A stretch of DNA of 49,689 nt, taken from positions 1 to 49,689 of the forward strand of contig CAIKUK010000009.1 in NCBI GenBank assembly GCA_903830625.1, given 5' to 3'. This stretch comes from Candidatus Yanofskyibacteriota bacterium (GTDB taxonomy: Bacteria; Patescibacteriota; Minisyncoccia; 2-02-FULL-40-12; GWA2-44-9). Positions within the stretch are counted from its first letter, which is position 1. Every line of letters begins with the position of its first letter. The position numbers and the translations under genes were made by a program. The notes under the pieces are model-generated. The model ran no database searches, was not told the DNA's origin, and worked only from the letters and a program-made list of their open reading frames with translations. Below are positions 1-39,981 of this stretch, piece after piece.

Positions 1-58
1 AGTTAATCAAATGCTTTAAAATCTAACATATGTTAGATTTTAAAGCATTTGATTAACT
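1..58. repeat. 58-bp perfect palindrome at the window edge
   Basis: AGTTAATCAAATGCTTTAAAATCTAACATATGTTAGATTTTAAAGCATTTGATTAACT equals its own reverse complement. Confidence 0.95.
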
Positions 59-10748: not shown

Positions 10749-11324
10749 TTATCGCTTAAATAATTCCTCAGTCAGTTCAGTAACGCCGATTTTCTTTTCG
10801 GCGGAATATGGAATGACTTTATATTTACCAACTGTTTTTTGAATACTCTGCATCTGTTTGACGTATTCGGATTTTTTAATCTTATCCACTTTATTGGCCA
10901 CAATCAAGATATTTTTATTTCGTTCTTCCAGCCCGCGCAAGATTTCTTTGTCGTTGGCGGTCAGGCCGATTTCGGCGTCAATAATCAAAAGCACCAATTT
11001 CTGCTGATAATGCGAGTTGAACAGATACCAAAAAATTATCTTCTTGAGTTTGTCCCGTCCACCTTCATCGGCTTTAGCGTAACCATAGCCAGGCAAATCC
11101 ACGAGATAAAAAGATTTGTTGATTAAAAATAAATTGACTTCCTGGGTCCGTCCGGGAAACGAGCTGGTTCGGGCCAAATCTTTTTGCTTGGTCAGAGAAT
11201 TGATAATGCTGGACTTGCCCACATTGGAACGCCCAATCAGAGCGATATGGTCTTTGCCGTCATCCAGAGCTTCATCGTCTCCGATAACGCCCTTCACAAA
11301 TTTTGCCGATGTTATTGTTGGCAT
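10749..11324 (-). CDS. engB: Ribosome biogenesis GTP-binding protein EngB/YsxC
   Basis: GRSNVGKSSIINSLT, VDLPGYGYAKA, NKVDKIKKSE; native start taken as MPTITSAKF. Confidence 0.94.
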   Translation of the reverse strand: MPTITSAKFVKGVIGDDEALDDGKDHIALIGRSNVGKSSIINSLTKQKDLARTSSFPGRTQEVNLFLINKSFYLVDLPGYGYAKADEGGRDKLKKIIFWYLFNSHYQQKLVLLIIDAEIGLTANDKEILRGLEERNKNILIVANKVDKIKKSEYVKQMQSIQKTVGKYKVIPYSAEKKIGVTELTEELFKR

Positions 11325-11461
11325 CCCGCACATAACAGCCATCAGTTGCTGTAACGCAGTACAATTTAACTTTGCTGATGCGTTTAGCTTCCAGAATGGT
11401 CTGTCTTGTTAATTATACTTATTCCCGCAACACGTACTGCATATGGCTGTTATGTGCGGGA
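11324..11461. mobile_element. 138-bp MITE-like element, copy 1, with 19-bp perfect terminal inverted repeats
   Basis: TCCCGCACATAACAGCCAT...ATGGCTGTTATGTGCGGGA; about 90% identical to 39813-39950 by eye. Confidence 0.88.
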
Positions 11462-26313: not shown

Positions 26314-26853
26314 TTAACGCTTGTTCCACTGTGGCGCTTTTCTGGCCTTCTTTAAGCCGTACTTGCGGCGTTCTTTGGCGCGGGAATCGCGAGTGAGAAA
26401 ACCGGATTTCTTGAGCTTCTTGCGGAAGTTGGCATCAAACAATTCCAGGGCGCGGGAAATACCGTGTTTAATGGCGCCGGCTTGGCCGGCGATACCGCCG
26501 CCGTGAACCATGACCGTGGCCTTGAATCGGTTGATGGATTTAAGTTTGCGGAGCGGAGATTCCACAATGTGTTGCAAATTAACATCACTGAAGTAGTCGG
26601 TATAACTTTTTTGATTGACCATAATGATGGCTTTCTCTTCACTGGCGACGTCGGTTGATTTTTTAGTAAAAAGACGGACACGAGCAATGGCTTCTTTACG
26701 TCGGCCGACAGTTTCAAAATATTTCTCCGGGCCCTTTTCTTCGGCCTCAATCACTTCTTCCGGTGCGGAAACAACCACCTCTTCGTCGAGGATTGGGACG
26801 ACTGCTTTTGCTTTCTTGGGTTTAATTGTTTTTACCGCTTTCTTGATAGGCAT
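26314..26853 (-). CDS. rpsI: 30S ribosomal protein S9 with N-terminal extension
   Basis: [62 protein letters not shown]. Confidence 0.96.
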
Positions 26854-26925
26854 ATATTTAGGGTGTTAGGTCTTTAGGGTTCTAGGAGCTAGGTTCCTGA
26901 ATTCCTAGACACCTAGTTTCCTGAT

Positions 26926-27267
26926 TTACTGAAATTTCAAATTCTTGATTATTTTGTCGCGAGTTTTGTTATCGGGCAACATCCGGTAAACCATGTGGCG
27001 GAAAACTTCCTGCGGATTCTTGGCCCATTCTTCGCCCAAATTGCGGGCGCGAATACCGCTGTGATAACCGGAATAATGGTAATAGGTTTTCTGTTCCAGT
27101 TTTTTCCCCGTGAACTTGGCCGATTTTAAATTGGAAATGACGACTTCCACGTTAGCCAGTTTTTCCGGAGCATAAGACGCCAGATGTTTGCCGCGCAAAA
27201 CCTCCGCGACTTTAGTGGCGATGCGTCCCAGAGATTGATTAGTAGCGTCAATTGGATAGGTAGTCAT
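26926..27267 (-). CDS. rplM: 50S ribosomal protein L13
   Basis: IDATNQSLGRIATKVAEVLRGKH, NLKSAKFTGKKLEQKTYYHYSGYHSGI, HMVYRMLPDNK. Confidence 0.96.
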   Translation of the reverse strand: MTTYPIDATNQSLGRIATKVAEVLRGKHLASYAPEKLANVEVVISNLKSAKFTGKKLEQKTYYHYSGYHSGIRARNLGEEWAKNPQEVFRHMVYRMLPDNKTRDKIIKNLKFQ

Positions 27268-27379: not shown

Positions 27380-27756
27380 TTGGCTGGAGTGGTTGTTGGG
27401 GTGGCCTTTAAACCAGTTAATTCGATTATGGCCATTTCGGCGCCGTCGCTTTGGCGCTGGCCCAAACGGATAATCCTGGTATAGCCCCCCTTGCGGTCGG
27501 CATTGACTTTAACCACTTCGCTCATCAGTTTTTTAACGGCTGTCTCACCGACATGGCCCAGCAATTCCCGGCGGGCATTCAAATTATCACGCTTGGCGAG
27601 GGTAATCAACTTATCAATAACCGGAGCCAATGACTTAGCTTTAGCTTGGGTGGTCTTAATATGACCGTGGCTGATCAAAGCCGTCACCAGCGATTTGTAC
27701 ATCGCGGTTCGGACTTTGCGGTCTAGGCCGAATTTTCGTTGATTGCCTCGTTTCAT
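27370..27756 (-). CDS. rplQ: 50S ribosomal protein L17
   Basis: MKRGNQRKFGLDRKVRTAMYKSLVTALISHGHIKTTQAKAKSLAPVIDKLITLAK. Confidence 0.97.
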   Translation of the reverse strand: MKRGNQRKFGLDRKVRTAMYKSLVTALISHGHIKTTQAKAKSLAPVIDKLITLAKRDNLNARRELLGHVGETAVKKLMSEVVKVNADRKGGYTRIIRLGQRQSDGAEMAIIELTGLKATPTTTPAKSR

Positions 27757-27807
27757 AACTTTAGGGTTTTAGGTCTTTAGGATTCTAGGGACTAGATTCC
27801 TGACTTC

Positions 27808-28548
27808 CTAGATTCCTGATTTATTTTTTTTCTTGGCTTTGGGTTCTTTTTTAACCGGCGCTTCCGGAACGGCTACTTCATGCACGACGTTAAAATGGTT
27901 GATTAAAATCTCGGCGGCGCTCTTCATGGCCATTTCTGGTTCAATTGAACCGTCGGTTTCCACTTCCATGGTCACTTTGTTGAAGTCGATGCGCTGGCCG
28001 ACACGAACATCTTCAATCTTGAAGTTTACCAAACGCACCGGCGAAAAGATGGCATCAATAGCAATGACGCCGATAGCCAGTTTTTCTTTCTGGCGCTGTT
28101 CAACCGGGACATAGCCGATTCCTTTTTCCACATCCAGTTCTAAAGCAAATTCTGTTTTCTTATCGGTCAGCGTAGCAATGTGCTGTTCCGGATTGATGAC
28201 TTCGATGTCGGCGTTGGTTTTAATGTCGGCGGCGGTCACTTCTTTTTCACCTTTGACTTCGATGTTTAATTTAACCGGTCCGTCAACATAAAGTCGGAAT
28301 TTAATCTTCTTAATGTTCATAATGAGCTCGATGACATCTTCTTGAATGCCGGCGATACTGGAAAATTCATGATCCACACCCTTGATTTTGATGGAAGTGA
28401 TAGCCGCGCCTTCAAGCGAGGACAACAGGACACGGCGAAGCGGATTCGCAATCGTGGCGCCATAGCCCGGCATGAGCGGACTGATTTCAAAGGTGGCTCG
28501 GTTGCCATTCTTCGCTATTACTTTGATTTGTTCGGGTGTCTGTATCAT
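27808..28548 (-). CDS. rpoA: DNA-directed RNA polymerase subunit alpha (no C-terminal domain seen)
   Basis: EISPLMPGYGATIANPLRRVLLSSLEGAAITSIKIKGVDHEFSSIAGIQEDVIELIMNIK; ends after the NTD. Confidence 0.96.
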   Translation of the reverse strand: MIQTPEQIKVIAKNGNRATFEISPLMPGYGATIANPLRRVLLSSLEGAAITSIKIKGVDHEFSSIAGIQEDVIELIMNIKKIKFRLYVDGPVKLNIEVKGEKEVTAADIKTNADIEVINPEQHIATLTDKKTEFALELDVEKGIGYVPVEQRQKEKLAIGVIAIDAIFSPVRLVNFKIEDVRVGQRIDFNKVTMEVETDGSIEPEMAMKSAAEILINHFNVVHEVAVPEAPVKKEPKAKKKNKSGI

Positions 28549-28760: not shown

Positions 28761-29395
28761 TATCTTGAATAATACTCAATGATGGCTTGCAAATCGCTGT
28801 GGCCGATACCGCTTTCATCGGCAGTGGCCATGCCTTTAACTTTAGCCGTCACGTTTTCTTTATTTAACTCCAGCCAGCTCGGCGCTTCATATTTGGGCAG
28901 CCACTGCGGGACAAGATTCGTGAAATAAGCGCTTTTCTTGCTGCCTTCGCGCACCGAAATGACATCACCAATCTTCACTTGATAGGAAGGAATACTGACC
29001 TTGCGTCCATTCACCAAAACGTGGCCGTGATTGACAAGCTGTCGGGCTTGGTCGCGGGATTGAGCCAGACCCATGCGATAAGCCGTGTTATCAAGCCGAT
29101 GTTCCAGAGAATTAATAATCAAAGAATAAGCGTCTTTACGGGAAGCCGAAGCGCTTTTGACGTAGCTCTTAAACTGCTTTTCAAGCATGCGGTAAATATT
29201 GCGAACCTTTTGTTTGGTCTTTAATTGCTGGCCAAATTCAGAAAGCTTGCGAACCGGCTTGTGGCCTTGGATTCCCGGCGGATAAGGCTTCTTAGTGATG
29301 GCTGTTTTGCCAAGTTGGGAACGCAAACCCTTGATGCCGAGTTTTTCGCCAATGCGTCGTTCAATTCTTTCTTTTGGTCCGGTATAACGTGCCAT
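28760..29395 (-). CDS. rpsD: 30S ribosomal protein S4
   Basis: MARYTGPKERIERRIGEKLGIKG, RLDNTAYRMGLAQSRDQARQLVNHGHVLVNGRKVSIPSYQVK. Confidence 0.97.
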   Translation of the reverse strand: MARYTGPKERIERRIGEKLGIKGLRSQLGKTAITKKPYPPGIQGHKPVRKLSEFGQQLKTKQKVRNIYRMLEKQFKSYVKSASASRKDAYSLIINSLEHRLDNTAYRMGLAQSRDQARQLVNHGHVLVNGRKVSIPSYQVKIGDVISVREGSKKSAYFTNLVPQWLPKYEAPSWLELNKENVTAKVKGMATADESGIGHSDLQAIIEYYSR

Positions 29396-29455
29396 TTGTT
29401 TAGTGTGTTAGGTCTTTAGGATTCTAGGTTCCTAGACTCCTAGATTCCTGATTGT

Positions 29456-30853: not shown

Positions 30854-32740
30854 CTAATAGGATACGTCAACTTGGACCTTATCCTTATTATTTGGGATAG
30901 ACCTGACCCAAAATGGGGACAAATTAACATTGGCCGAAGTAATGCCGGAAATTGAGCCTAGATAAGCCCTCATATCGGCGTCATTCTTGCCCAATAGGTC
31001 GGTAATAATCTTTTGTTGGTCCACTTTGGAATAGCCGGGACCGGTCACATGAACCGTAAAGGATAGGCCGTTTTTGGCTTCATCCCAACGAGGATTGGTG
31101 TAGGTTATGGTTAATTTGTCCAGCAAAACGGTTTTACTTTTTTGAGTATCCACATATTGACTAATCAGAGTGTAAAGGTCGGATTCTTTAAAACCGATGG
31201 TTTTGAGTGAGCCAGCTAGATTAACCTTGAAAGTGCTGGCGGTCGCGTCGGCGGGACTGGTTGAGCTGGGACTGCCGATAACCACCTGACTGTCGTTTAT
31301 GATTTTCAAACCATTGATTTGGGTTTTAAGTTCATCTTGAATGTTAGCGGTAAGCAAAGTCGTCAAAGTTTGTTTGGCCGTATTTAAATCAGATTCCGTT
31401 ACCACGGTGGACTGACCGCTGGTGCCATTAAGGATGGGCGCGGTCGATTGGCCGTAAACTTTTTGATATTTTTCCGTATTCCCCTGTTCTTTAAAAGCCG
31501 GAATAGTAAACAAACCCACCGGGACGTTATATTCCGAACCGGCTTTATCGGCGATAACTTGAACATCCTTACTGCCTGGCACCAGTTTGCCGCTAACAGT
31601 TTTGCCGGCCGGTACCACAATCGAAGTCAAAGTGTGAAAAATATGGTGGTCGGCTGATTCGAAACGCGTGGTCGTTACCAGGGGCTGATCCGTTGTCAGT
31701 TCGTTATAAACCGTAATCGTGCCTCGGGCTTTTTGAGCGACATCCACATGACCCGTGGCGATAAAGTCCTGAGAAACGGTTTTTTGAATATTGAAGAGTT
31801 GGCCCGGTACCGCCATACCCGTTAAACTAACGGCCGAAGTATTATCCGAAGCGAACACGGTCAGACTGAAATCCAGCGGCTGGCTGGCTGGCTTAATTGT
31901 CACTTGGGCTTTCCCGGTCGTAATAAAAACAACCGTGCCCAAAATAATGACCGCCACACAAGCCATGGCAATCAGACCGATGCGATGGGAAGAACGCCTA
32001 GGACGGTCAAATCCGTTGGAAACAAGTTTTGGTTTAAAATTTGATAACGAACGTCTGGTTCGGCTAAACCAGCCCATCGCTTTCGGCGCCAAGTTTGTCT
32101 CCGTTGGAATAGCCCGAGAACCCCAGACACTTTTTATTTCCTGCAAGGCGCGATGTTCAAGAGGTTCATCAGAGAAGTCGCTTTGTCTGATTTCCACCGG
32201 AATAGTTTTTTCACGTCCGCCGTAAACTTTCACGTTGCGCTGGTTTTCAGTTCCAGGCACAAAGATGTCATCCAAGCGTCGGCCATTGGGAGAATCATCA
32301 TCTTCTAAATCATCGCTGGTTTCTTCTTTAACTTGTGCTGTTGATGTTGAAATTGAATCTTCACTCGTGGCTGGCTCGGAATAAAAGTCTTCGATCTGGT
32401 TGACCACGCTGATTGAGCCTGAATCGGCCGGGACCAGTCGAGACGAGCTTGTTTGCCGGCTAACAGATTTCTTGGGGGCCGACGAACGGGCCAGAAGAAC
32501 ATCAAATTTATATTTTTTAGCCAAATCGTTCAGTTCCGGACTGGAACAAAGAAAAGAAACCGATTTTCCGAGACTCTTAGATTCGTCTTTGAGAGAAGCA
32601 AAATGCTCTTCTCTCTTGAAAGCCCGGGCGCTTTTGGGCAGTACGAAAATCACTTCTTCGGCCGAGGTGGATTTGAAGAGGTCTAAAATCTCTTCAAACG
32701 AATCATCCTTGAGAACATTGATAATCTTTGTGGAAGACAC
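30854..32740 (-). CDS. Large single-TM protein of the CPR type often labelled baseplate J/gp47-like
   Basis: N-terminal globular region, disordered linker, TM (IGLIAMACVAVIILGTVVFITTG), extracellular repeats. Confidence 0.65.
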   Translation of the reverse strand: MSSTKIINVLKDDSFEEILDLFKSTSAEEVIFVLPKSARAFKREEHFASLKDESKSLGKSVSFLCSSPELNDLAKKYKFDVLLARSSAPKKSVSRQTSSSRLVPADSGSISVVNQIEDFYSEPATSEDSISTSTAQVKEETSDDLEDDDSPNGRRLDDIFVPGTENQRNVKVYGGREKTIPVEIRQSDFSDEPLEHRALQEIKSVWGSRAIPTETNLAPKAMGWFSRTRRSLSNFKPKLVSNGFDRPRRSSHRIGLIAMACVAVIILGTVVFITTGKAQVTIKPASQPLDFSLTVFASDNTSAVSLTGMAVPGQLFNIQKTVSQDFIATGHVDVAQKARGTITVYNELTTDQPLVTTTRFESADHHIFHTLTSIVVPAGKTVSGKLVPGSKDVQVIADKAGSEYNVPVGLFTIPAFKEQGNTEKYQKVYGQSTAPILNGTSGQSTVVTESDLNTAKQTLTTLLTANIQDELKTQINGLKIINDSQVVIGSPSSTSPADATASTFKVNLAGSLKTIGFKESDLYTLISQYVDTQKSKTVLLDKLTITYTNPRWDEAKNGLSFTVHVTGPGYSKVDQQKIITDLLGKNDADMRAYLGSISGITSANVNLSPFWVRSIPNNKDKVQVDVSY

Positions 32741-33057
32741 CGGGTAGTAGAACTTCGAGTTGCCGCAACAAGATTATGGCTTGAAGAGGTAATCGCGAAG
32801 CCTTCGTTTTAATAATCGTGAACCTTGATTTGTTTTTAAATACCTTTCTCTACGCTTAGCGTCATTTGCATGAAGACAGGCTTCGCAGTAAACAATACTC
32901 CATGATTCGCCATTTTTAGTAGACTTGTTGCGGCCTTGATTATGTTCCAACAATCGCCTCTTCAGATTTTCTGTATATCCTATGTATAATTCCTTATTTT
33001 TATTTTCTAGCACGTAGACGTAATGGAACATAACCCTCTCGAAGTTTCACTACCCGG
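32740..33057. mobile_element. GIY-YIG gene flanked by 20-bp inverted repeats
   Basis: CCGGGTAGTAGAACTTCGAG (32740-32759) versus reverse complement of CTCGAAGTTTCACTACCCGG (33038-33057), 18/20. Confidence 0.7.
32774..33031 (-). CDS. GIY-YIG nuclease family protein
   Basis: MFHYVYVLENKNKELYIGYTENLKRRLLEHNQG. Confidence 0.95.
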   Translation of the reverse strand: MFHYVYVLENKNKELYIGYTENLKRRLLEHNQGRNKSTKNGESWSIVYCEACLHANDAKRRERYLKTNQGSRLLKRRLRDYLFKP

Positions 33058-33243: not shown

Positions 33244-33525
33244 ATGCCGAAAGAACGTTGTGATATTGTCAGGCACGGACACCGGAAATACAACATCCGG
33301 CAGACGAGACCAGCGAACCACAGAGTTGATCAACCTGCTCCTTCCCTCGGTAAAGTCATTTTAGTCAGGGACGCGAGGGACATGACCATCCGATTCAAGA
33401 TCCAGTTCGACAAAACGTGCACCGTCGCCGATGATCCAGCCTGGCAGACAAGGGCCACAGAGGCGGTACTTCGAGAAATCGGATTCAGGTTCAAGGACTT
33501 CAAGCCGGTTTCGTGGAGACCCTAG
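33244..33525 (+). CDS. Hypothetical 93-aa protein, orphan cassette
   Basis: SD GGGAGCAGTT; overlaps the dus 3' end by 26 bp; strong terminator follows. Confidence 0.6.
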   Translation: MPKERCDIVRHGHRKYNIRQTRPANHRVDQPAPSLGKVILVRDARDMTIRFKIQFDKTCTVADDPAWQTRATEAVLREIGFRFKDFKPVSWRP

Positions 33526-34561
33526 ACGCCAGAGACTCAAGTTTTTCGAGAGTCTCTGGCGCTGTTTTTATTTTCATTAACTTGTTACGAATTTCTTTAG
33601 CACCTTCAAAATCATTGATATATATCTTTATGAACCTTTTCATAACATCAAAGTTTTTGCCCGCACCCCAAAGCTCCACAAAGTTTTGAATATGTTTTTT
33701 GAGTAAGTTTATACGTTCTTCTCGTGTATGTACTTCAGATGGATTAACCCCCACACTCAGTTGGTTGCTGGCTTTGCCATCTGAAGATTCAATCAACTGA
33801 GTGTGGGGGTGAAAAAACCAAGGATTTTGAAATATCCCCCGGCCGACCATAATGCCGTCCAAATCATATTGCTTAGCTTTTTCTATGCCTTCAGTGTAAC
33901 TCATCACATCCCCATTACCGACAACAATAATGCCGGCTGCGTGGCAAAGTCGCGCGGCTTTGCCAATCTCATCCCAATGAGCGGGCGCTTTTGATGCTTC
34001 TTTCATTGTCCGGCCGTGAACAATAATGGCATCCGGTTTGGCTTCAATGATTTTTGATACCCATTCTTCGGTAACAATTGTGTTGTAGCCGATACGGGTT
34101 TTTATTGAAACCGGCAAATTGCCTGCTCCACGTTTGGTTTCAATGATTATTTGTTGAGCTAATTCGGGATTATTAATTAAAGCGGCCCCGGAATTCTGTT
34201 TTAGAATTTTTCTTTCGGGACAACCCATATTGATATCGATACCATCAAAACCTAATTCCGCAATAAGTTTGGCGCATTCATAAAAATGTTCGGGCACGCT
34301 TCCGAATATTTGCGCCACAATCGGCCGTTCGTTTTCTTTAAATGATAAATGAGGCAATAGTTTAGCTTTGCCCGCCATAGCTTTAGCGTCGGCGGGGCCA
34401 GCTTTCATTACATAATTCAAACCATCCGCCGACACAAATTCAGTATACAAAACATCTGGCTTGCCACAATCGCAAACGATCTGCCTAAACGCCATATCGG
34501 TCACATCCGACATCGGCGCCAGGACGAAGAAGGGTTTTTTAAGTTGTTTCCAGAAATTCAT
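33500..34561 (-). CDS. dus: tRNA-dihydrouridine synthase
   Basis: VLAPMSDVTDMAFRQI, DGIDINMGCPERKILKQNSGAAL, VHGRTMKEASKAPAHWDEIGKAAR, GNGDVMSYTEG. Confidence 0.95.
   Translation of the reverse strand: MNFWKQLKKPFFVLAPMSDVTDMAFRQIVCDCGKPDVLYTEFVSADGLNYVMKAGPADAKAMAGKAKLLPHLSFKENERPIVAQIFGSVPEHFYECAKLIAELGFDGIDINMGCPERKILKQNSGAALINNPELAQQIIIETKRGAGNLPVSIKTRIGYNTIVTEEWVSKIIEAKPDAIIVHGRTMKEASKAPAHWDEIGKAARLCHAAGIIVVGNGDVMSYTEGIEKAKQYDLDGIMVGRGIFQNPWFFHPHTQLIESSDGKASNQLSVGVNPSEVHTREERINLLKKHIQNFVELWGAGKNFDVMKRFIKIYINDFEGAKEIRNKLMKIKTAPETLEKLESLASRVSTKPA
33527..33561 (+). terminator. Intrinsic terminator lying within the dus 3' coding end
   Basis: CGCCAGAGACTC/GAGTCTCTGGCG then CTGTTTTTA. Confidence 0.82.
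33733..33810 (-). repeat. In-frame interleaved inverted repeats in dus
   Basis: a CTTCAGATGG 33733-33742; b ACCCCCACACTCAGTTG 33747-33763; a' CCATCTGAAG 33777-33786; b' CAACTGAGTGTGGGGGT 33794-33810. Confidence 0.85.
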
Positions 34562-34579
34562 ATTTATAATTATAACAAA

Positions 34580-34906
34580 AAGAAAAGGAGCGGCAGCCAG
34601 AAGGCGTACCGCTCAGTATCGAAGGTGTCTGTGCAAGCTCATTTCCTTATCGGGGCCTGCCGGAGGGAATCTCTCCCTTCCGTGTTTAGGCTTATCGGTT
34701 GTTGGAACAACCGATAGTTTCCCTTGGTTTCAGCCGGTGCCCCGACATCCATCCAAGGTACTTAGGTGCCTAGCTGCTCGACCGAAGGCCGAGTCCGCTT
34801 GGTCCTACAACCCCAGCCCGAAAGCTGGTTTAGCCTCTTCCCTCATACGTGGGGCTCCATCCCACTTCCGGGGAATCGCCATTGCTTTCTTCACCAGACA
34901 ACCTCG
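34580..34906 (-). ncRNA. Free-standing structured RNA candidate with 23S domain-I-like words
   Basis: Promoter TTGACA...TATACT; hairpins CCAGC/GCTGG, TATCGGTTGTT/AACAACCGATA; words GAAAGCAATGGCGATTCCC and GGGCTGGGGTTGTAGGACC; GAGCGG/CCGCTC then CTTTTCTTTTT. Confidence 0.7.
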
Positions 34907-34912
34907 ACGAGA

Positions 34913-34943
34913 AGTATAGTACCAGACGCAATGTCTATGTCAA
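34913..34943 (-). promoter_or_regulatory. Promoter of the 34580-34906 RNA
   Basis: Minus strand TTGACA (34938-34943), spacer 19, TATACT (34913-34918). Confidence 0.6.
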
Positions 34944-34947
34944 ATGG

Positions 34948-36783
34948 TTATTCAACTGTGGCTCGGATACGGCGGTTGCCTCCGGAGACGGATTCTTCTT
35001 TAGTGATAGTGATATGGCCGATCTCGCCGGTATGGGTCACATGGGGACCGGCGCAAATCTCGCGGGAGAACCAATTATTATCTTCGCCGACCGTATAGAC
35101 TTTGACTCTCGGCGGATACTTAGCCTTAAAGATACCCGCGGCGCCGGAATCCAAAGCTTCCTGTAAATCCACTTCTTTAAATGTCACCGGCAAATCTTTT
35201 TTCACGATTTCGTTAGCCATATCCTCGGCCTGTTTCAATTCTTCGGGAGTAATTTTTCTGGGAAAATTAAAATCAAATCTCAACCGCTCTACCGTAATAT
35301 CAGCTCCGGCTTGAGCCAATTCCTGGCCTAAGACTTTCCGCAGGGCCGCATCCAGAAGATGAGTCGCCGTATGCAAACGAGTTTTCTTTTTCATTTCTTC
35401 TCTTCTCTCAACTGATAAGTCGGCTTCTTTTACCCCCACACCAAACGAACGATTGCCTTCGGCGCTCCCGACTTCGTTTGTTATGGTGTGGGGGTGAATG
35501 CCATGCCCGCCGAATTTCTTTTCCACGCCGGCGCGAGAAATATTTTTATGAATTTCCATTTCTTTATTAAATCCTTCCTCATCAAATTCATATAGATGAT
35601 TCTCTGCTATTTCTTTAATAACTTCTGGTGGGAATCCATAACTTTGATATAAATCAAAGGCATCCTTGCCTGAAATTTTTTGCCCCACTACAAATGGCTT
35701 TACACTTTGTCCTGGCACCAGTTCTTGAGCCTTGAGGCCAGGATATTTTTTATAGAATTCCTCAAGTCCTTTATCAAGTGTCAGGAGAAACTTAGTAACT
35801 TCTTTGGTAAATTCATTAATTATTGACTGTTGGTTATCTATTAATTCAGAATGACTCTTCCCGTATTCGATAATAATTTTTTGCATGAAATCGGCTATAA
35901 CACTGGTTGGTATTTGGATATTTTTCGAATGGACAAGAAGGCGTCTTATTAATTTTCTTAGTATATAACCCCTCTCCTTATTTGATGGTTGTACCCCATC
36001 AGCAATTAAAAAAACGGAAGCCCTTAGATGGTCGGCTATTATTCTGCCACTTTTTAATTCATCGGGCGCTCCTGCAAATAAAGCAAACGAGAAAACATTA
36101 CTAAACAGGTCAGTTTCAAAAATATTGCTTTTATTCTGAACAACCATCGCCAAGCGTTCCAGGCCCATGCCGGTATCAATGCCTTTTATGGCCAGTGGTT
36201 TCAGTTGTTTGTCGGCGCTTTGATAGTACTCATTAAAAACGATATTCCAAACCTCAAGGTCGTTTACATAAATTTCAGTCGTCGGACCACAAGGACCTTC
36301 CTCCCCGGTCGGTCCCCAAAAATTATCCTCTCGGCCAGCTCTTTTTATTTTCAATGCCGGATCAATCGATTGCCATATCTTTTCCGATTCTTCATCCGCT
36401 GGCACTCCTTCTTCGCCTTGAAAAACCGAAACGTAATCAATGGTCAGACCCATTTCTTTGGTAATGAATTCGTGGGCATATTCAATGGCTTCCTTTTTCC
36501 AATAATCTCCGAACGAGAAATTACCGAGCATTTCAAAGAAAGTCAGGTGTGAATCATCTCCCACCTCGTCAATATCCGAAGTGCGCAAACATTTTTGAAT
36601 AGAAACGACATTTTTGTCCGGCGCTTCGGCCGGGTTTATATAATATGGCTTGAATTGTTGCATGCCGGCCGTTGTAAACAAAACCGACGGGTCGGTCGGC
36701 AACAACGACGAAGACGGCACCACGGCGTGCCCTTTTGATTCAAAAAATTTAATAAACCTCTCCCGTATTTCCTTCTGAGTCAT
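34948..36783 (-). CDS. alaS: Alanyl-tRNA synthetase, short form
   Basis: FFESKGHAVVPSSSLLPTDPSVLFTTAGMQQFKPYY, HTATHLLDAALRKVLG, CAGPHVTHTGEIG; ends at 611 aa without C-Ala domain. Confidence 0.95.
   Translation of the reverse strand: MTQKEIRERFIKFFESKGHAVVPSSSLLPTDPSVLFTTAGMQQFKPYYINPAEAPDKNVVSIQKCLRTSDIDEVGDDSHLTFFEMLGNFSFGDYWKKEAIEYAHEFITKEMGLTIDYVSVFQGEEGVPADEESEKIWQSIDPALKIKRAGREDNFWGPTGEEGPCGPTTEIYVNDLEVWNIVFNEYYQSADKQLKPLAIKGIDTGMGLERLAMVVQNKSNIFETDLFSNVFSFALFAGAPDELKSGRIIADHLRASVFLIADGVQPSNKERGYILRKLIRRLLVHSKNIQIPTSVIADFMQKIIIEYGKSHSELIDNQQSIINEFTKEVTKFLLTLDKGLEEFYKKYPGLKAQELVPGQSVKPFVVGQKISGKDAFDLYQSYGFPPEVIKEIAENHLYEFDEEGFNKEMEIHKNISRAGVEKKFGGHGIHPHTITNEVGSAEGNRSFGVGVKEADLSVERREEMKKKTRLHTATHLLDAALRKVLGQELAQAGADITVERLRFDFNFPRKITPEELKQAEDMANEIVKKDLPVTFKEVDLQEALDSGAAGIFKAKYPPRVKVYTVGEDNNWFSREICAGPHVTHTGEIGHITITKEESVSGGNRRIRATVE
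35417..35495 (-). repeat. In-frame interleaved inverted repeats in alaS
   Basis: a AAGTCGG 35417-35423; b ACCCCCACACCA 35432-35443; a' CCGACTT 35468-35474; b' TGGTGTGGGGGT 35484-35495. Confidence 0.8.
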
Positions 36784-36822: not shown

Positions 36823-39813
36823 CTAGCTCATCGTCCGACGCAACGCGCAGTATTCACAATCCTTATCGTCGCAGAAACGGTTCCAGAATTTGAGATTTAA
36901 GATTTCATCGGCCGTTTCTTTAATGACCTCGGTCAATTCTTCCACTTCTTCAGGCAAAATGATAAACGATTCTTTTTTATATTTTCCTTTTTCGTCAGGC
37001 TCAATGAAATCAATATCGCCCGAAACCATGATGTATTTACGGCCATCTTCATATTTATTCAGAAGTAAATTATAGAACATCAGCTGGCGTTTAATATCGC
37101 CGTTGGAACTCTTGGTTGAACCTTCTATCTCGCCTCGGGTTTTCGGTTTTGAAGTTTTGTAATCCACCACATTCACTTCTTTGCCAGAGCCGAGCATTTC
37201 TATCTTATCTATTTTGCCGGTAATCCTAATATCCCCGACGCTTCGGTCGGGGCGGGCCGGCGCAAGCATAATTCCTCGGAGTTCCAATTCAGTTATCGTT
37301 TTTGTCCGCCAAGAGCCGTGATAATTATCGAAGTAGCCAGCCAAGGTTTTATTTCCTTTTTCCAGCAGTTCGTCATATTCTTTTTTACTTAATGGCTGGC
37401 GTTTTAAATAAGTCTCAAATCTAGACAAAAGAAACTTTTTATCCGCTTTGCCGGTTCGATAAGAATCAAAGAAATCTTTGAGCGTGTAATGCACGGCCGT
37501 GCCGTACATCTGATGCTTGGTTTTCGCCTGCGGAATACGGAGCAGATTGGTATAAAAATATTTCCACGGACAATCCAGATAATTATTCAGAGCGGTGACG
37601 GAAAGGCCGTTACGTTTGAACAGGTCGCCGATAAAAGCTTTACTTTTCAGATCAATACCTTTTTGGATCCGCGGAGCAAAAATTATCTCTTTCTTTTTGG
37701 CAAAATTCTTTTCAATCAACTCGGTGTCTTTGGTGGCAATCAGTTCGGGTTTTATTTCCGTGATGAATTGGCAAGGCAACTGGTCTTGCCCGCTTAAACT
37801 TTCTTTGGCATAAGAAATAGACGCGCCTTTCTTGGCTCTGGTCAGGGCCACGTAGAATAACCGCCGTTCATCATCTTCTGTCGCGCCTTTGTCCAGAATC
37901 CGGCCAGTCAGCGAAAATACCCTCGCCGGTAAGACTAAATGGTTCGGCCGGCGTTTATTGCCCCAATGGCCGTCATAAGCGTTGATAATATAGACGTATT
38001 CAAATTCCTGGCCTTTGGAACGATGTGCGGTCATGAGCCGGATTTGCCCTGCGGATGAGCTGATGCTTTTCTTTAATAATAGATTGTGGGTTTTGAGCGT
38101 AGCCAGATATTGCAGGAATTCCGGCAAGCCGTTCGTCGGATGGACTTCCACCAAATTTTTAATTTCATCAAACAAGCCGTTTAATTTATCCAGCTTCTCC
38201 ATGGTCTGGCCCTTCATGATGTATTTCAAAAATCCCGATTCGGTAATTATCTTTTCAAAAAGTTCCGGCAAAGAAATATTATGCGCCAGCGTGGCCCAGC
38301 CGGCCAGAATTTTATAAAAATTCAAAAAGGCTTCCGGATTTTCCACACCCGCTTTTTTAAGCCGGGTTTTTGATTTTATTATTTCATAAGCCGAAATCTT
38401 TTCTTTATGCGCGGATTCTATAATTTTAAACACGTCCAGCATTTCAAATCCTAAAAAATCAATATTCAGCGCTTCAAGCAGTTTCTGTTCGGAACCGAAA
38501 GTCTGCACTGTTTCCAGAATAAGCAAAACTTTTCTGATATCATAATCCGATAACAAGTCCTGGTCGGATTCAATGGCGAACGGCAGACCGGCTTTTTCAA
38601 ACATGGCCGCCACCGGCGCGGCATCGCGATTATCACGATACAAAACGGCAATTTCTTGAGGTTCAGTGCCGGCTTTTATTTTACTTTTAATATCTTCGGC
38701 TAGGAAAAAATATTCCGCCTCCGGTTTTGAGAATTCATACACGCCTATTTTTTCTTTAGGATGCACCACGTTGGCGCTTAAGGGCTTCTCGCCGGCCAGC
38801 AAGCTATGGGCCGCATCCAGGATTGGCTGGGTAGAACGATAATTCTCTTCCAGAACAATCAGTTTAGCCGACGGATACAATTTTTTAAAATATAAGAAAT
38901 TTTCCAGCGAAGCGCCTTGGAAACGGAAGATGGCTTGCTTCTCATCGCCAACCACAAAGATATTCGGATTGTCGTGATAATTGGCCAGCAGTTCCAGAAT
39001 TTTGTTTTGGGCGTTATTGGTATCTTGATGTTCGTCCACCAAAAAATACTGATACTGTTCTTGAATCTGGAGCAAAAGATTTTCATTCGCGGAAAGTTCG
39101 CGCAGCGTTTCCATAATCATGTCGCTGTAATCATAAAGCTTGGCGGACATCAGTTTGACTTGATACCATTCGTAAATTTTAGCCAGTTCGGCATTTTTGG
39201 CGATTTGTTTTTGCAGTTTTTGATAGTCGCCTTTCATTTTGCCCTTGTGAGCTCCTTTTTCATGATACAAATCATCAATCGCTTCAAAGCTTTTTAATTC
39301 AGCCGTAATAATCTTATGAAACTGCTCGGGCGAAACGCCTTCGCGTTTTAAATCATTCAAACACGCCAAAATCGGGCGGACATAAAACATCGGGTCGCCA
39401 AACGGTCTTAATTCTTTGAGCGGCAAAGTGCCAATCGCCTCCTCTATTAAATTAACCTGATCTACTTCGGTGATATTGTTCGCGCCGATAATGCGTGGAA
39501 ATTCTCCAGGATTGGATTTGATGATTTCGTTACAGAATCCATGAAAAGTATTGATGGCCACCGAATAAGCCGGCGTACCGATCATCTCAGCCAGCCGGCT
39601 GCGCATGGAAGCCACGCCCGATTCGGTAAAGGTCAGCGCTAAAATATTGCCCGGATTGATTTGAGTTTTTTGAAGAATGTTGGCGATGCGCAGAGTTAAG
39701 ATTTGGGTCTTGCCCGTGCCTGGCCCAGCCACCACCATAACCGGCCCTTCGATAGCATCGACGGCCTCGCGCTGGGCCTTATTGAGTTGTTTATAGGCTT
39801 CCTTGAATTCCAT
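36823..39813 (-). CDS. UvrD/REP-family ATP-dependent helicase with C-terminal PD-(D/E)XK nuclease
   Basis: VVAGPGTGKTQILTLRIANIL, FLVDEHQDTNNAQ, VVGDEKQAIFRFQGA, TAHRSKGQEFEYVYI, VVDYKTSKPKT, CDDKDCEYCALRR. Confidence 0.93.
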   Translation of the reverse strand: MEFKEAYKQLNKAQREAVDAIEGPVMVVAGPGTGKTQILTLRIANILQKTQINPGNILALTFTESGVASMRSRLAEMIGTPAYSVAINTFHGFCNEIIKSNPGEFPRIIGANNITEVDQVNLIEEAIGTLPLKELRPFGDPMFYVRPILACLNDLKREGVSPEQFHKIITAELKSFEAIDDLYHEKGAHKGKMKGDYQKLQKQIAKNAELAKIYEWYQVKLMSAKLYDYSDMIMETLRELSANENLLLQIQEQYQYFLVDEHQDTNNAQNKILELLANYHDNPNIFVVGDEKQAIFRFQGASLENFLYFKKLYPSAKLIVLEENYRSTQPILDAAHSLLAGEKPLSANVVHPKEKIGVYEFSKPEAEYFFLAEDIKSKIKAGTEPQEIAVLYRDNRDAAPVAAMFEKAGLPFAIESDQDLLSDYDIRKVLLILETVQTFGSEQKLLEALNIDFLGFEMLDVFKIIESAHKEKISAYEIIKSKTRLKKAGVENPEAFLNFYKILAGWATLAHNISLPELFEKIITESGFLKYIMKGQTMEKLDKLNGLFDEIKNLVEVHPTNGLPEFLQYLATLKTHNLLLKKSISSSAGQIRLMTAHRSKGQEFEYVYIINAYDGHWGNKRRPNHLVLPARVFSLTGRILDKGATEDDERRLFYVALTRAKKGASISYAKESLSGQDQLPCQFITEIKPELIATKDTELIEKNFAKKKEIIFAPRIQKGIDLKSKAFIGDLFKRNGLSVTALNNYLDCPWKYFYTNLLRIPQAKTKHQMYGTAVHYTLKDFFDSYRTGKADKKFLLSRFETYLKRQPLSKKEYDELLEKGNKTLAGYFDNYHGSWRTKTITELELRGIMLAPARPDRSVGDIRITGKIDKIEMLGSGKEVNVVDYKTSKPKTRGEIEGSTKSSNGDIKRQLMFYNLLLNKYEDGRKYIMVSGDIDFIEPDEKGKYKKESFIILPEEVEELTEVIKETADEILNLKFWNRFCDDKDCEYCALRRTMS
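37233..37252. repeat. GC-rich palindrome inside the helicase CDS
   Basis: CCCCGAC-gcttcg-GTCGGGG; sister of 45739-45758. Confidence 0.75.
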
Positions 39814-39950
39814 CCCGCACATAACAGCCATCAGTTGCTGTAACGCAGTACAATTCAACTTTGTTGATGCGTTCAGCTTCTAGAATGGTCTGCTTTGTTA
39901 ATGACTTTTCGTCCCGCAACATGTACTGCCTATGGCTGTTATGTGCGGGA
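39813..39950. mobile_element. 138-bp MITE-like element, copy 2, 19-bp TIRs and 7-bp flanking direct repeat
   Basis: TCCCGCACATAACAGCCAT...ATGGCTGTTATGTGCGGGA; flanks ATTCCAT|CCCGCAC and GTGCGGG|ATTCCAT. Confidence 0.9.
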
Positions 39951-39981
39951 TTCCATGTTCAGAGTATATCATTTTTATAAA

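What the first reader, a model, noticed from the sequence alone, without database searches (positions are those of the whole stretch)
35417..35495. Second in-frame element with the same topology in alaS
Seen: a AAGTCGG, b ACCCCCACACCA, a' CCGACTT, b' TGGTGTGGGGGT, again interleaved a-b-a'-b', in the same reading phase (CAC CCC CAC ACN ... GTG GGG GTN, giving HPHT...VGV). The a/a' and inner stem sequences differ from those in dus while complementarity is kept, so pairing rather than sequence is conserved. The segment sits before the HTATHLL editing motif, where AlaRS length varies.
Basis: partly seen in the sequence, partly recalled or inferred. Interest (0 to 1): 0.87.

Follow-up and report, generated by a model that had tools for sequence, protein, structure and literature searches.

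The report
GIY-YIG hairpin elements invading bacterial genes
The hairpin inside this bacterium's alanyl-tRNA synthetase gene is a copy of a tiny mobile DNA element whose full-length relatives, about 290 bases long, appear to carry only one small GIY-YIG DNA-cutting enzyme, which would be a new and unusually small kind of jumping gene.

Summary
The alaS hairpin is real: an exact 66-nt, 22-aa in-frame insertion absent from 27 family orthologs, as is its twin in dus. 'Pairing conserved, sequence not' holds for the b/b' hairpin.

It belongs to a dispersed family with ends CCCCCACAC...GTGTGGGGG, mostly in CPR genomes, often in frame in housekeeping genes. About 300-nt members with the same ends, including one in this genome, encode only an 84-aa GIY-YIG nuclease. 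This generalises: 45 of 88 small GIY-YIG genes in the window's family are flanked by inverted repeats, against 0.3% of random positions. Nuclease and repeat sequences co-vary, flanks carry 4-bp duplications, and related elements share no flanking DNA.

Best explanation: a single-protein GIY-YIG mobile element with terminal inverted repeats; the alaS and dus copies are non-autonomous derivatives, comparable to MITEs or Rickettsia palindromic elements. Mobility is inferred from comparison; that the nuclease drives insertion is not demonstrated. No prior description was found in the searched library.

The parts
35433..35494 (-). Non-autonomous hairpin element in alaS: CCCCCACACC...GGTGTGGGGG, translated as HPHTITNEVGSAEGNRSFGVGV. 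With one 4-nt flank the insertion is 66 nt.
35429..35432 (.). Left 4-nt flank TTTA: probably ancestral target (alaS codons)
35495..35498 (.). Right 4-nt flank TGAA: the added 4 nt (diverged duplication or element-borne)
33748..33809 (-). Second non-autonomous copy, in dus: CCCCCACACTCAG...CTGAGTGTGGGGG, translated as HPHTQLIESSDGKASNQLSVGV; flanks TTAA/TGAA
34948..36783 (-). Host gene alaS (tRNA-synt_2c, tRNA_SAD)
33500..34561 (-). Host gene dus (dihydrouridine synthase)
32740..33057 (-). Complete-looking GIY-YIG element of another repeat subtype (318 nt): imperfect 20-bp terminal inverted repeats CCGGGTAGTgaAACTTCGAG / CTCGAAGTTctACTACCCGG
32774..33031 (-). 85-aa single-domain GIY-YIG nuclease ORF inside that element
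11324..11460 (.). Second non-autonomous family: about 140-nt repeat with ends TCCCGCACATAAC...GTTATGTGCGGGA, matching the ends of the GIY-YIG element at G000:C15 (its ORF has one internal TAA)
39812..39951 (.). Another copy of the TCCCGCACATAAC family; further copies at G000:C12 and C14

Best explanation
The alaS segment is a non-autonomous copy of a very small mobile DNA element. Candidate autonomous members are about 275-325 nt: a terminal inverted repeat of about 12-22 bp (outer motif such as CCCCCACAC, with lineage-specific variants), a single 80-90 aa GIY-YIG nuclease ORF filling the loop, and the second repeat. They are often flanked by a 4-bp direct repeat (TTGA, TGAA and similar). Short members keep only the ends and a hairpin and are moved in trans. 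Inserted into genes, they add 3n nt and are translated as an about 22-aa insert. Proposed mechanism: the GIY-YIG nuclease recognises the end motif and the hairpin or cruciform formed by the repeats, cuts at its base and at a T-rich 4-bp target with a 4-nt stagger, and host repair joins and fills the ends to give the duplication. Supported by sequence comparison: insertion, end structure, 4-bp duplications, coupling of nuclease and ends, dispersal without flanks, intact catalytic residues. Inferred: that the GIY-YIG protein is the mobilising enzyme, recognition of hairpin structure, and the joining step.
For: (1) Both window copies are private 22-aa insertions against family orthologs. In dnaE, homologous upstream DNA in a same-genus genome shows the uninterrupted start; the own genome and G011 carry the element as ATGAA-[element]-TGAA. 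(2) Elements of about 300 nt with the same CCCCCACAC ends encode only a GIY-YIG protein, including G000:C24:46797-47090 in the same genome (Pfam GIY-YIG E 1e-16). (3) 45 of 88 small GIY-YIG genes in the family are flanked by inverted repeats scoring >=12; random placements give 0.34%. The same occurs in other CPR families. (4) Exact 4-bp flanking repeats: 14 of 45 GIY-YIG elements, shuffles mean 2.4, max 8; 19 of 87 CCCCCACAC copies, shuffles mean 5.7, max 11, with excess at length 4 and not 3. (5) Nuclease similarity tracks repeat similarity: Mantel r 0.45, largest of 2000 permutations 0.21. (6) Within repeat subtypes 53 of 65 element pairs are alike in DNA, while flanks are alike in one pair only. 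(7) Two short families in this genome each match a coding element of the same genome by end sequence. (8) Y5, Y16, G18, R26, H30 are invariant and E62 is 99% in 72 repeat-flanked proteins, which also share a C-terminal R78 (89%) that unflanked relatives mostly lack. (9) No Y1 transposase in this genome.
Against: No transposition assay. GIY-YIG enzymes are known as hydrolytic nucleases; strand transfer by them is not established (own knowledge). The alaS copy's own ends (CCAAACGA type) match a coding element of another genome (G028), not the CTCACAAGG type found here. Many genomes with short CCCCCACAC copies show no matching coding element. In the family, matching nucleases and short copies coincide in only 2 genomes. 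Flanks of many copies are not exact duplications (TTTA/TGAA, CTTG/TGAA). Co-variation of nuclease and ends also follows from simple co-inheritance. The genomes are mostly metagenome assemblies.
Confidence: 0.7

Rival explanations
1. Homing-type spread: the GIY-YIG gene is a free-standing homing endonuclease that cuts allelic or similar targets and is copied in by repair. The hairpin is a tolerated cap, and short copies are deletion derivatives of nuclease copies.
For: GIY-YIG is a classic homing-endonuclease domain (weak TIGR01453 group I intron endonuclease hits). The same dnaE site is occupied in two genera, G000 and G011. Two GIY-YIG elements sit in 16S-like sequence (L234, L235).
Against: Related elements sit at unrelated loci with no flank similarity, with short direct repeats and conserved inverted repeats. 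Homing needs neither. PMC11270868 also judged CPR rRNA GIY-YIG insertions to lie outside the homing context.
Confidence: 0.17
2. The GIY-YIG gene is a passenger: an unidentified enzyme or replication process moves any segment bounded by these hairpin ends, including tRNA genes.
For: Some hairpin ends enclose tRNA genes (L162, L164). Interiors of short copies are very diverse.
Against: No other protein was found inside the ends, whereas GIY-YIG recurs across many repeat types with nuclease-end coupling and invariant catalytic residues. No Y1 transposase in the own genome.
Confidence: 0.09
3. The hairpin is an RNA or translational device (pseudoknot, processing site or bypassed segment) selected for host function.
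For: Strong hairpin with conserved pairing.
Against: The a/a' pseudoknot pairing is at chance. Copies lie in unrelated genes and intergenic DNA. Lengths are mostly 3n and open in frame (46 of 63), which a bypassed segment would not need. Orthologs lack it.
Confidence: 0.03

Closest known systems
Rickettsia palindromic elements (RPEs)
   Same: Short palindromic repeats inserted in frame in unrelated housekeeping genes and translated (PMC10969869).
   Different: About 66 nt against about 150 nt; different sequence and host phylum; here a candidate autonomous, nuclease-encoding partner with the same ends is found.
Bacterial MITEs
   Same: Non-autonomous, terminal inverted repeats, short direct duplications, short derivatives of a coding element.
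   Different: The coding partner is a GIY-YIG nuclease of about 85 aa rather than a DDE transposase.
REP/RAYT and IS200/IS605 (Y1 HUH) elements
   Same: Hairpin ends with a variable interior, moved in trans by a small protein.
   Different: No Y1 transposase in this genome; here 4-bp duplications and two matching ends.
GIY-YIG homing endonucleases and UPF0213/YhbQ-type GIY-YIG proteins
   Same: Same catalytic domain; nearest solved structures 1zg2 and 1ywl, both UPF0213.
   Different: Those are not known to me as flanked by terminal inverted repeats. The repeat-flanked subfamily has a distinct C-terminal motif with R78.
GIY-YIG-encoding insertions in CPR rRNA genes (PMC11270868)
   Same: GIY-YIG ORFs in insertions matching no group I or II intron; two of our elements lie in 16S-like sequence (L234, L235).
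   Different: Terminal repeats, duplications, non-autonomous copies and protein-gene targets were not found in the passages read.

Membership tests
MITE (non-autonomous derivative of a TIR element) | Terminal inverted repeats | tested here: met
MITE (non-autonomous derivative of a TIR element) | Target-site duplication | tested here: inconclusive
   19 of 87 exact 4-bp repeats, shuffles max 11; the alaS and dus copies themselves are TTTA/TGAA and TTAA/TGAA
MITE (non-autonomous derivative of a TIR element) | Coding partner with the same ends in the genome | tested here: met
   G000:C24 element for the CCCCCACAC ends; G000:C15 for TCCCGCACATAA. For the alaS inner arm the best match is in G028.
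Rickettsia palindromic element | Palindrome inserted in frame and translated in unrelated genes | tested here: met
   in-frame insertion in many unrelated genes; translation itself inferred from open frames
Rickettsia palindromic element | Sequence homology to RPE families | not tested
   No RPE library at hand
REP/RAYT or IS200/IS605 | Y1 HUH transposase in the genome | tested here: not met
   PF01797 absent from G000
GIY-YIG nuclease family | Domain and catalytic residues | tested here: met
   Pfam PF01541; Y, Y, G, R, H invariant and E in 99% of 72 proteins
Autonomous DNA transposon | Nuclease-dependent transposition | not testable with these tools
   needs an assay

The most novel reading that the evidence does not exclude
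A new class of DNA transposable element in which a single GIY-YIG nuclease of about 85 aa is the only element-encoded protein, with about 290 nt as the complete autonomous unit, spreading hairpin derivatives in frame into essential genes of CPR bacteria.
Probability: 0.6. Interest if true: 0.93.

Novelty: categorically new. Interest (0 to 1): 0.86.

Why it matters
Prokaryotic transposable elements are classed by their nuclease (DDE, HUH, serine, tyrosine, Cas1). A GIY-YIG element with inverted repeats and 4-bp duplications would add a class, possibly with one of the smallest autonomous elements known. It would explain why CPR genomes carry many orphan small GIY-YIG genes, why GIY-YIG ORFs sit in CPR rRNA insertions that are not introns, and how palindromic coding inserts arise, a question open since the Rickettsia palindromic elements. 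It is also directly testable with a few hundred bases of DNA.

Tried and rejected
Interleaved pseudoknot: tested on 59 copies, chance level. Rfam: no match for the element at the gathering threshold, and only chance-level hits at E about 0.5 for the dus copy. Y1/RAYT mobiliser: absent in G000. Plasmid and phage records: no relative of the nuclease at E 1e-8; IMG/VR scan: no relative confirmed. Matching coding elements were sought among further GIY-YIG loci of genomes with short copies: none beyond those already found. Structure prediction was not run because the Pfam match settles the fold. Literature: queries on palindromic coding elements, GIY-YIG mobile elements, CPR repeats and COG2827/UPF0213/YhbQ found no description of this element; preprints and most subscription papers were not searchable.

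Full report
OBSERVATION. The window carries CCCCCACACC...GGTGTGGGGG at 35433-35494 in alaS and CCCCCACACTC...GAGTGTGGGGG at 33748-33809 in dus, both genes on the minus strand. Each folds far better than shuffles. Aligned with family orthologs, AlaRS reads KFGGHGI-[HPHTITNEVGSAEGNRSFGVGV]-KEADLS against KFGGHGI-KEGDLT, and Dus reads NPWFF-[HPHTQLIESSDGKASNQLSVGV]-NPSE against NPWFF-NPS. Each insertion is 22 aa, 66 nt: 62 nt from CCCCC to GGGGG plus 4 nt.

PSEUDOKNOT. The a arms lie in ancestral host codons. Across 59 copies, the longest loop-to-flank complementarity equals that of shuffled loop/flank pairs. The interleaved topology is therefore rejected. What is conserved is the hairpin: beyond the shared outer nine or so bases, each copy's inner arms pair with each other (mean score 7.2) much better than with arms of other copies (4.1, maximum 4.6).

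FAMILY. A scan of one genome per species found 44 loci, mostly CPR, and targeted searches gave 87 distinct copies. Of 63 copies of 40-80 nt, 46 have a length of 3n+2, which with a 4-nt duplication is a multiple of 3 (one third expected). Forty-one lie in an open frame, most often read HPHT...VGV (26), then PPH...CGG (11); the third phase, which would meet TGA, is rare (4). From their flanking peptides some hosts look like SecA, UvrA, UvrC, MurD and MnmA (judged by eye, not tested). In dnaE, homologous upstream DNA shows the uninterrupted start in a same-genus genome (G005), while the own genome and G011 carry ATGAA-[element]-TGAA with the reading frame kept.

THE CODING PARTNER. Searching for unpaired ends revealed 294-313 nt (CCCCC to GGGGG) versions at G000:C24:46797-47090, in G028 (L156) and in L019. 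Each encodes an 84-85 aa protein and nothing else recognisable, a GIY-YIG domain (Pfam E down to 3e-19). The right arm of the alaS copy, GTTCGTTTGGTGTGGGGG, is the right arm of the G028 element. In an independent protein search of the family's 28 genomes, 25 had such genes, about 110 matches in all. Of 88 tested, 45 are flanked by inverted repeats scoring >=12, against 0.34% of 1741 random placements in the same loci. A stricter gapless test gives 25 of 89 against 0.05%. Repeat sequences differ between subtypes (CCCCCACAC, CCCCTCAC, CCCGCACATAA, CCCGTTAGAG, CCAGGTAGTG and others), yet nuclease similarity and repeat similarity correlate (Mantel r 0.45, largest of 2000 permutations 0.21). Within subtypes 53 of 65 element pairs align as DNA, but flanks align only for the window element and its same-genus counterpart L227. 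Seventy-two repeat-flanked proteins keep Y5, Y16, G18, R26 and H30 without exception and E62 in 99%; they share R78 (89%), which unflanked GIY-YIG relatives mostly lack. The unflanked relatives serve as an internal negative control.

DUPLICATIONS. Exact 4-bp direct repeats flank 14 of 45 GIY-YIG elements (mostly TTGA, TGAA; shuffles mean 2.4, max 8) and 19 of 87 CCCCCACAC copies, with excess at length 4 and none at 3. Many copies, including alaS and dus, have imperfect flanks (TTTA/TGAA, TTAA/TGAA). The CCCCCACAC sample was partly selected for TGA on one side, so it was compared only with shuffles of itself. Whether TGAA is then a diverged duplicate or element-borne is unresolved.

SECOND FAMILY IN THE WINDOW. 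The about 140-nt repeats at 11324-11460 and 39812-39951 have ends TCCCGCACATAAC, like further copies on C12 and C14 and like the GIY-YIG element at G000:C15, whose ORF has one internal stop. Together with the CCCCCACAC case, two short families in one genome each match a coding element by their ends. The window also holds a GIY-YIG element of a third subtype at 32740-33057 beside dus.

MECHANISM. Best supported: the GIY-YIG protein mobilises DNA bounded by its repeats into 4-bp targets. That the repeats are recognised partly as a hairpin or cruciform is inferred from conserved pairing with unconserved sequence. How the ends are joined is unknown; GIY-YIG enzymes are established as hydrolytic nucleases (own knowledge), so host repair joining is assumed. 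A homing-type spread is the main rival. The own genome has no Y1 transposase.

LIMITS. Genomes are mostly metagenome-assembled. Matching coding elements with CCCCCACAC ends were found in 7 genomes (G000, G011, G028, G039, G042, G045, G049), all of which carry short copies, but five of these genomes were chosen for having short copies. Many genomes with short copies have none. The exact CCCCCACAC type is uncommon across the phylum (6 of 380 genomes). Occurrences in Nitrospinota, Nitrospira and Omnitrophota bins could be binning errors.

NOVELTY. The in-gene copies resemble Rickettsia palindromic elements and MITEs. A GIY-YIG nuclease as the only protein of an inverted-repeat element was not found described in the searchable library; the nearest is a note that GIY-YIG ORFs in CPR rRNA insertions belong to no intron class and do not look like homing (PMC11270868).

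Noticed in passing
L162 and L164 (elements listed): CCCCCACAC hairpin ends enclose complete-looking tRNA genes (tRNA-Leu in L162; a tRNA-like sequence in L164).
   Followed up: partly
L180, L183, L184, L202, L251: GIY-YIG elements sit at what look like tRNA 5' ends; in L202 the right repeat seems to restore the first bases of the tRNA.
   Followed up: partly
L234, L235: GIY-YIG elements inserted in sequence that looks like 16S rRNA (GCAAGTCAAACG...AGTGGCGAACGA).
   Followed up: partly
L086 (G006 dus) and L093: The same Dus loop that carries our insert holds a different palindromic insert in G006 (TCCGCCAGAGGCGGATCCGCCTCTGGCGGA), so this loop tolerates several insert families.
   Followed up: no
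L299 (G000 dnaE) and L307 (G011 dnaE): Homologous hairpin copies at the same dnaE start in two genera while same-genus relatives of G000 lack it: old insertion with losses, or repeated targeting.
   Followed up: partly
window 34575-34935: About 350 nt between dus and alaS look highly structured and resemble rRNA-like words on the minus strand, but neither Rfam nor ARAGORN reports an RNA there.
   Followed up: partly
window 26846-26930, 27746-27833, 29388-29444: Dispersed repeats (TTTAGGGTGTTAGGTCTTTAGGRTTCTAGG...) near gene ends, unrelated to the CCCCCACAC family.
   Followed up: no
window 1-58: Perfect 29-bp inverted repeat with no spacer at the contig end, probably an assembly artefact.
   Followed up: no
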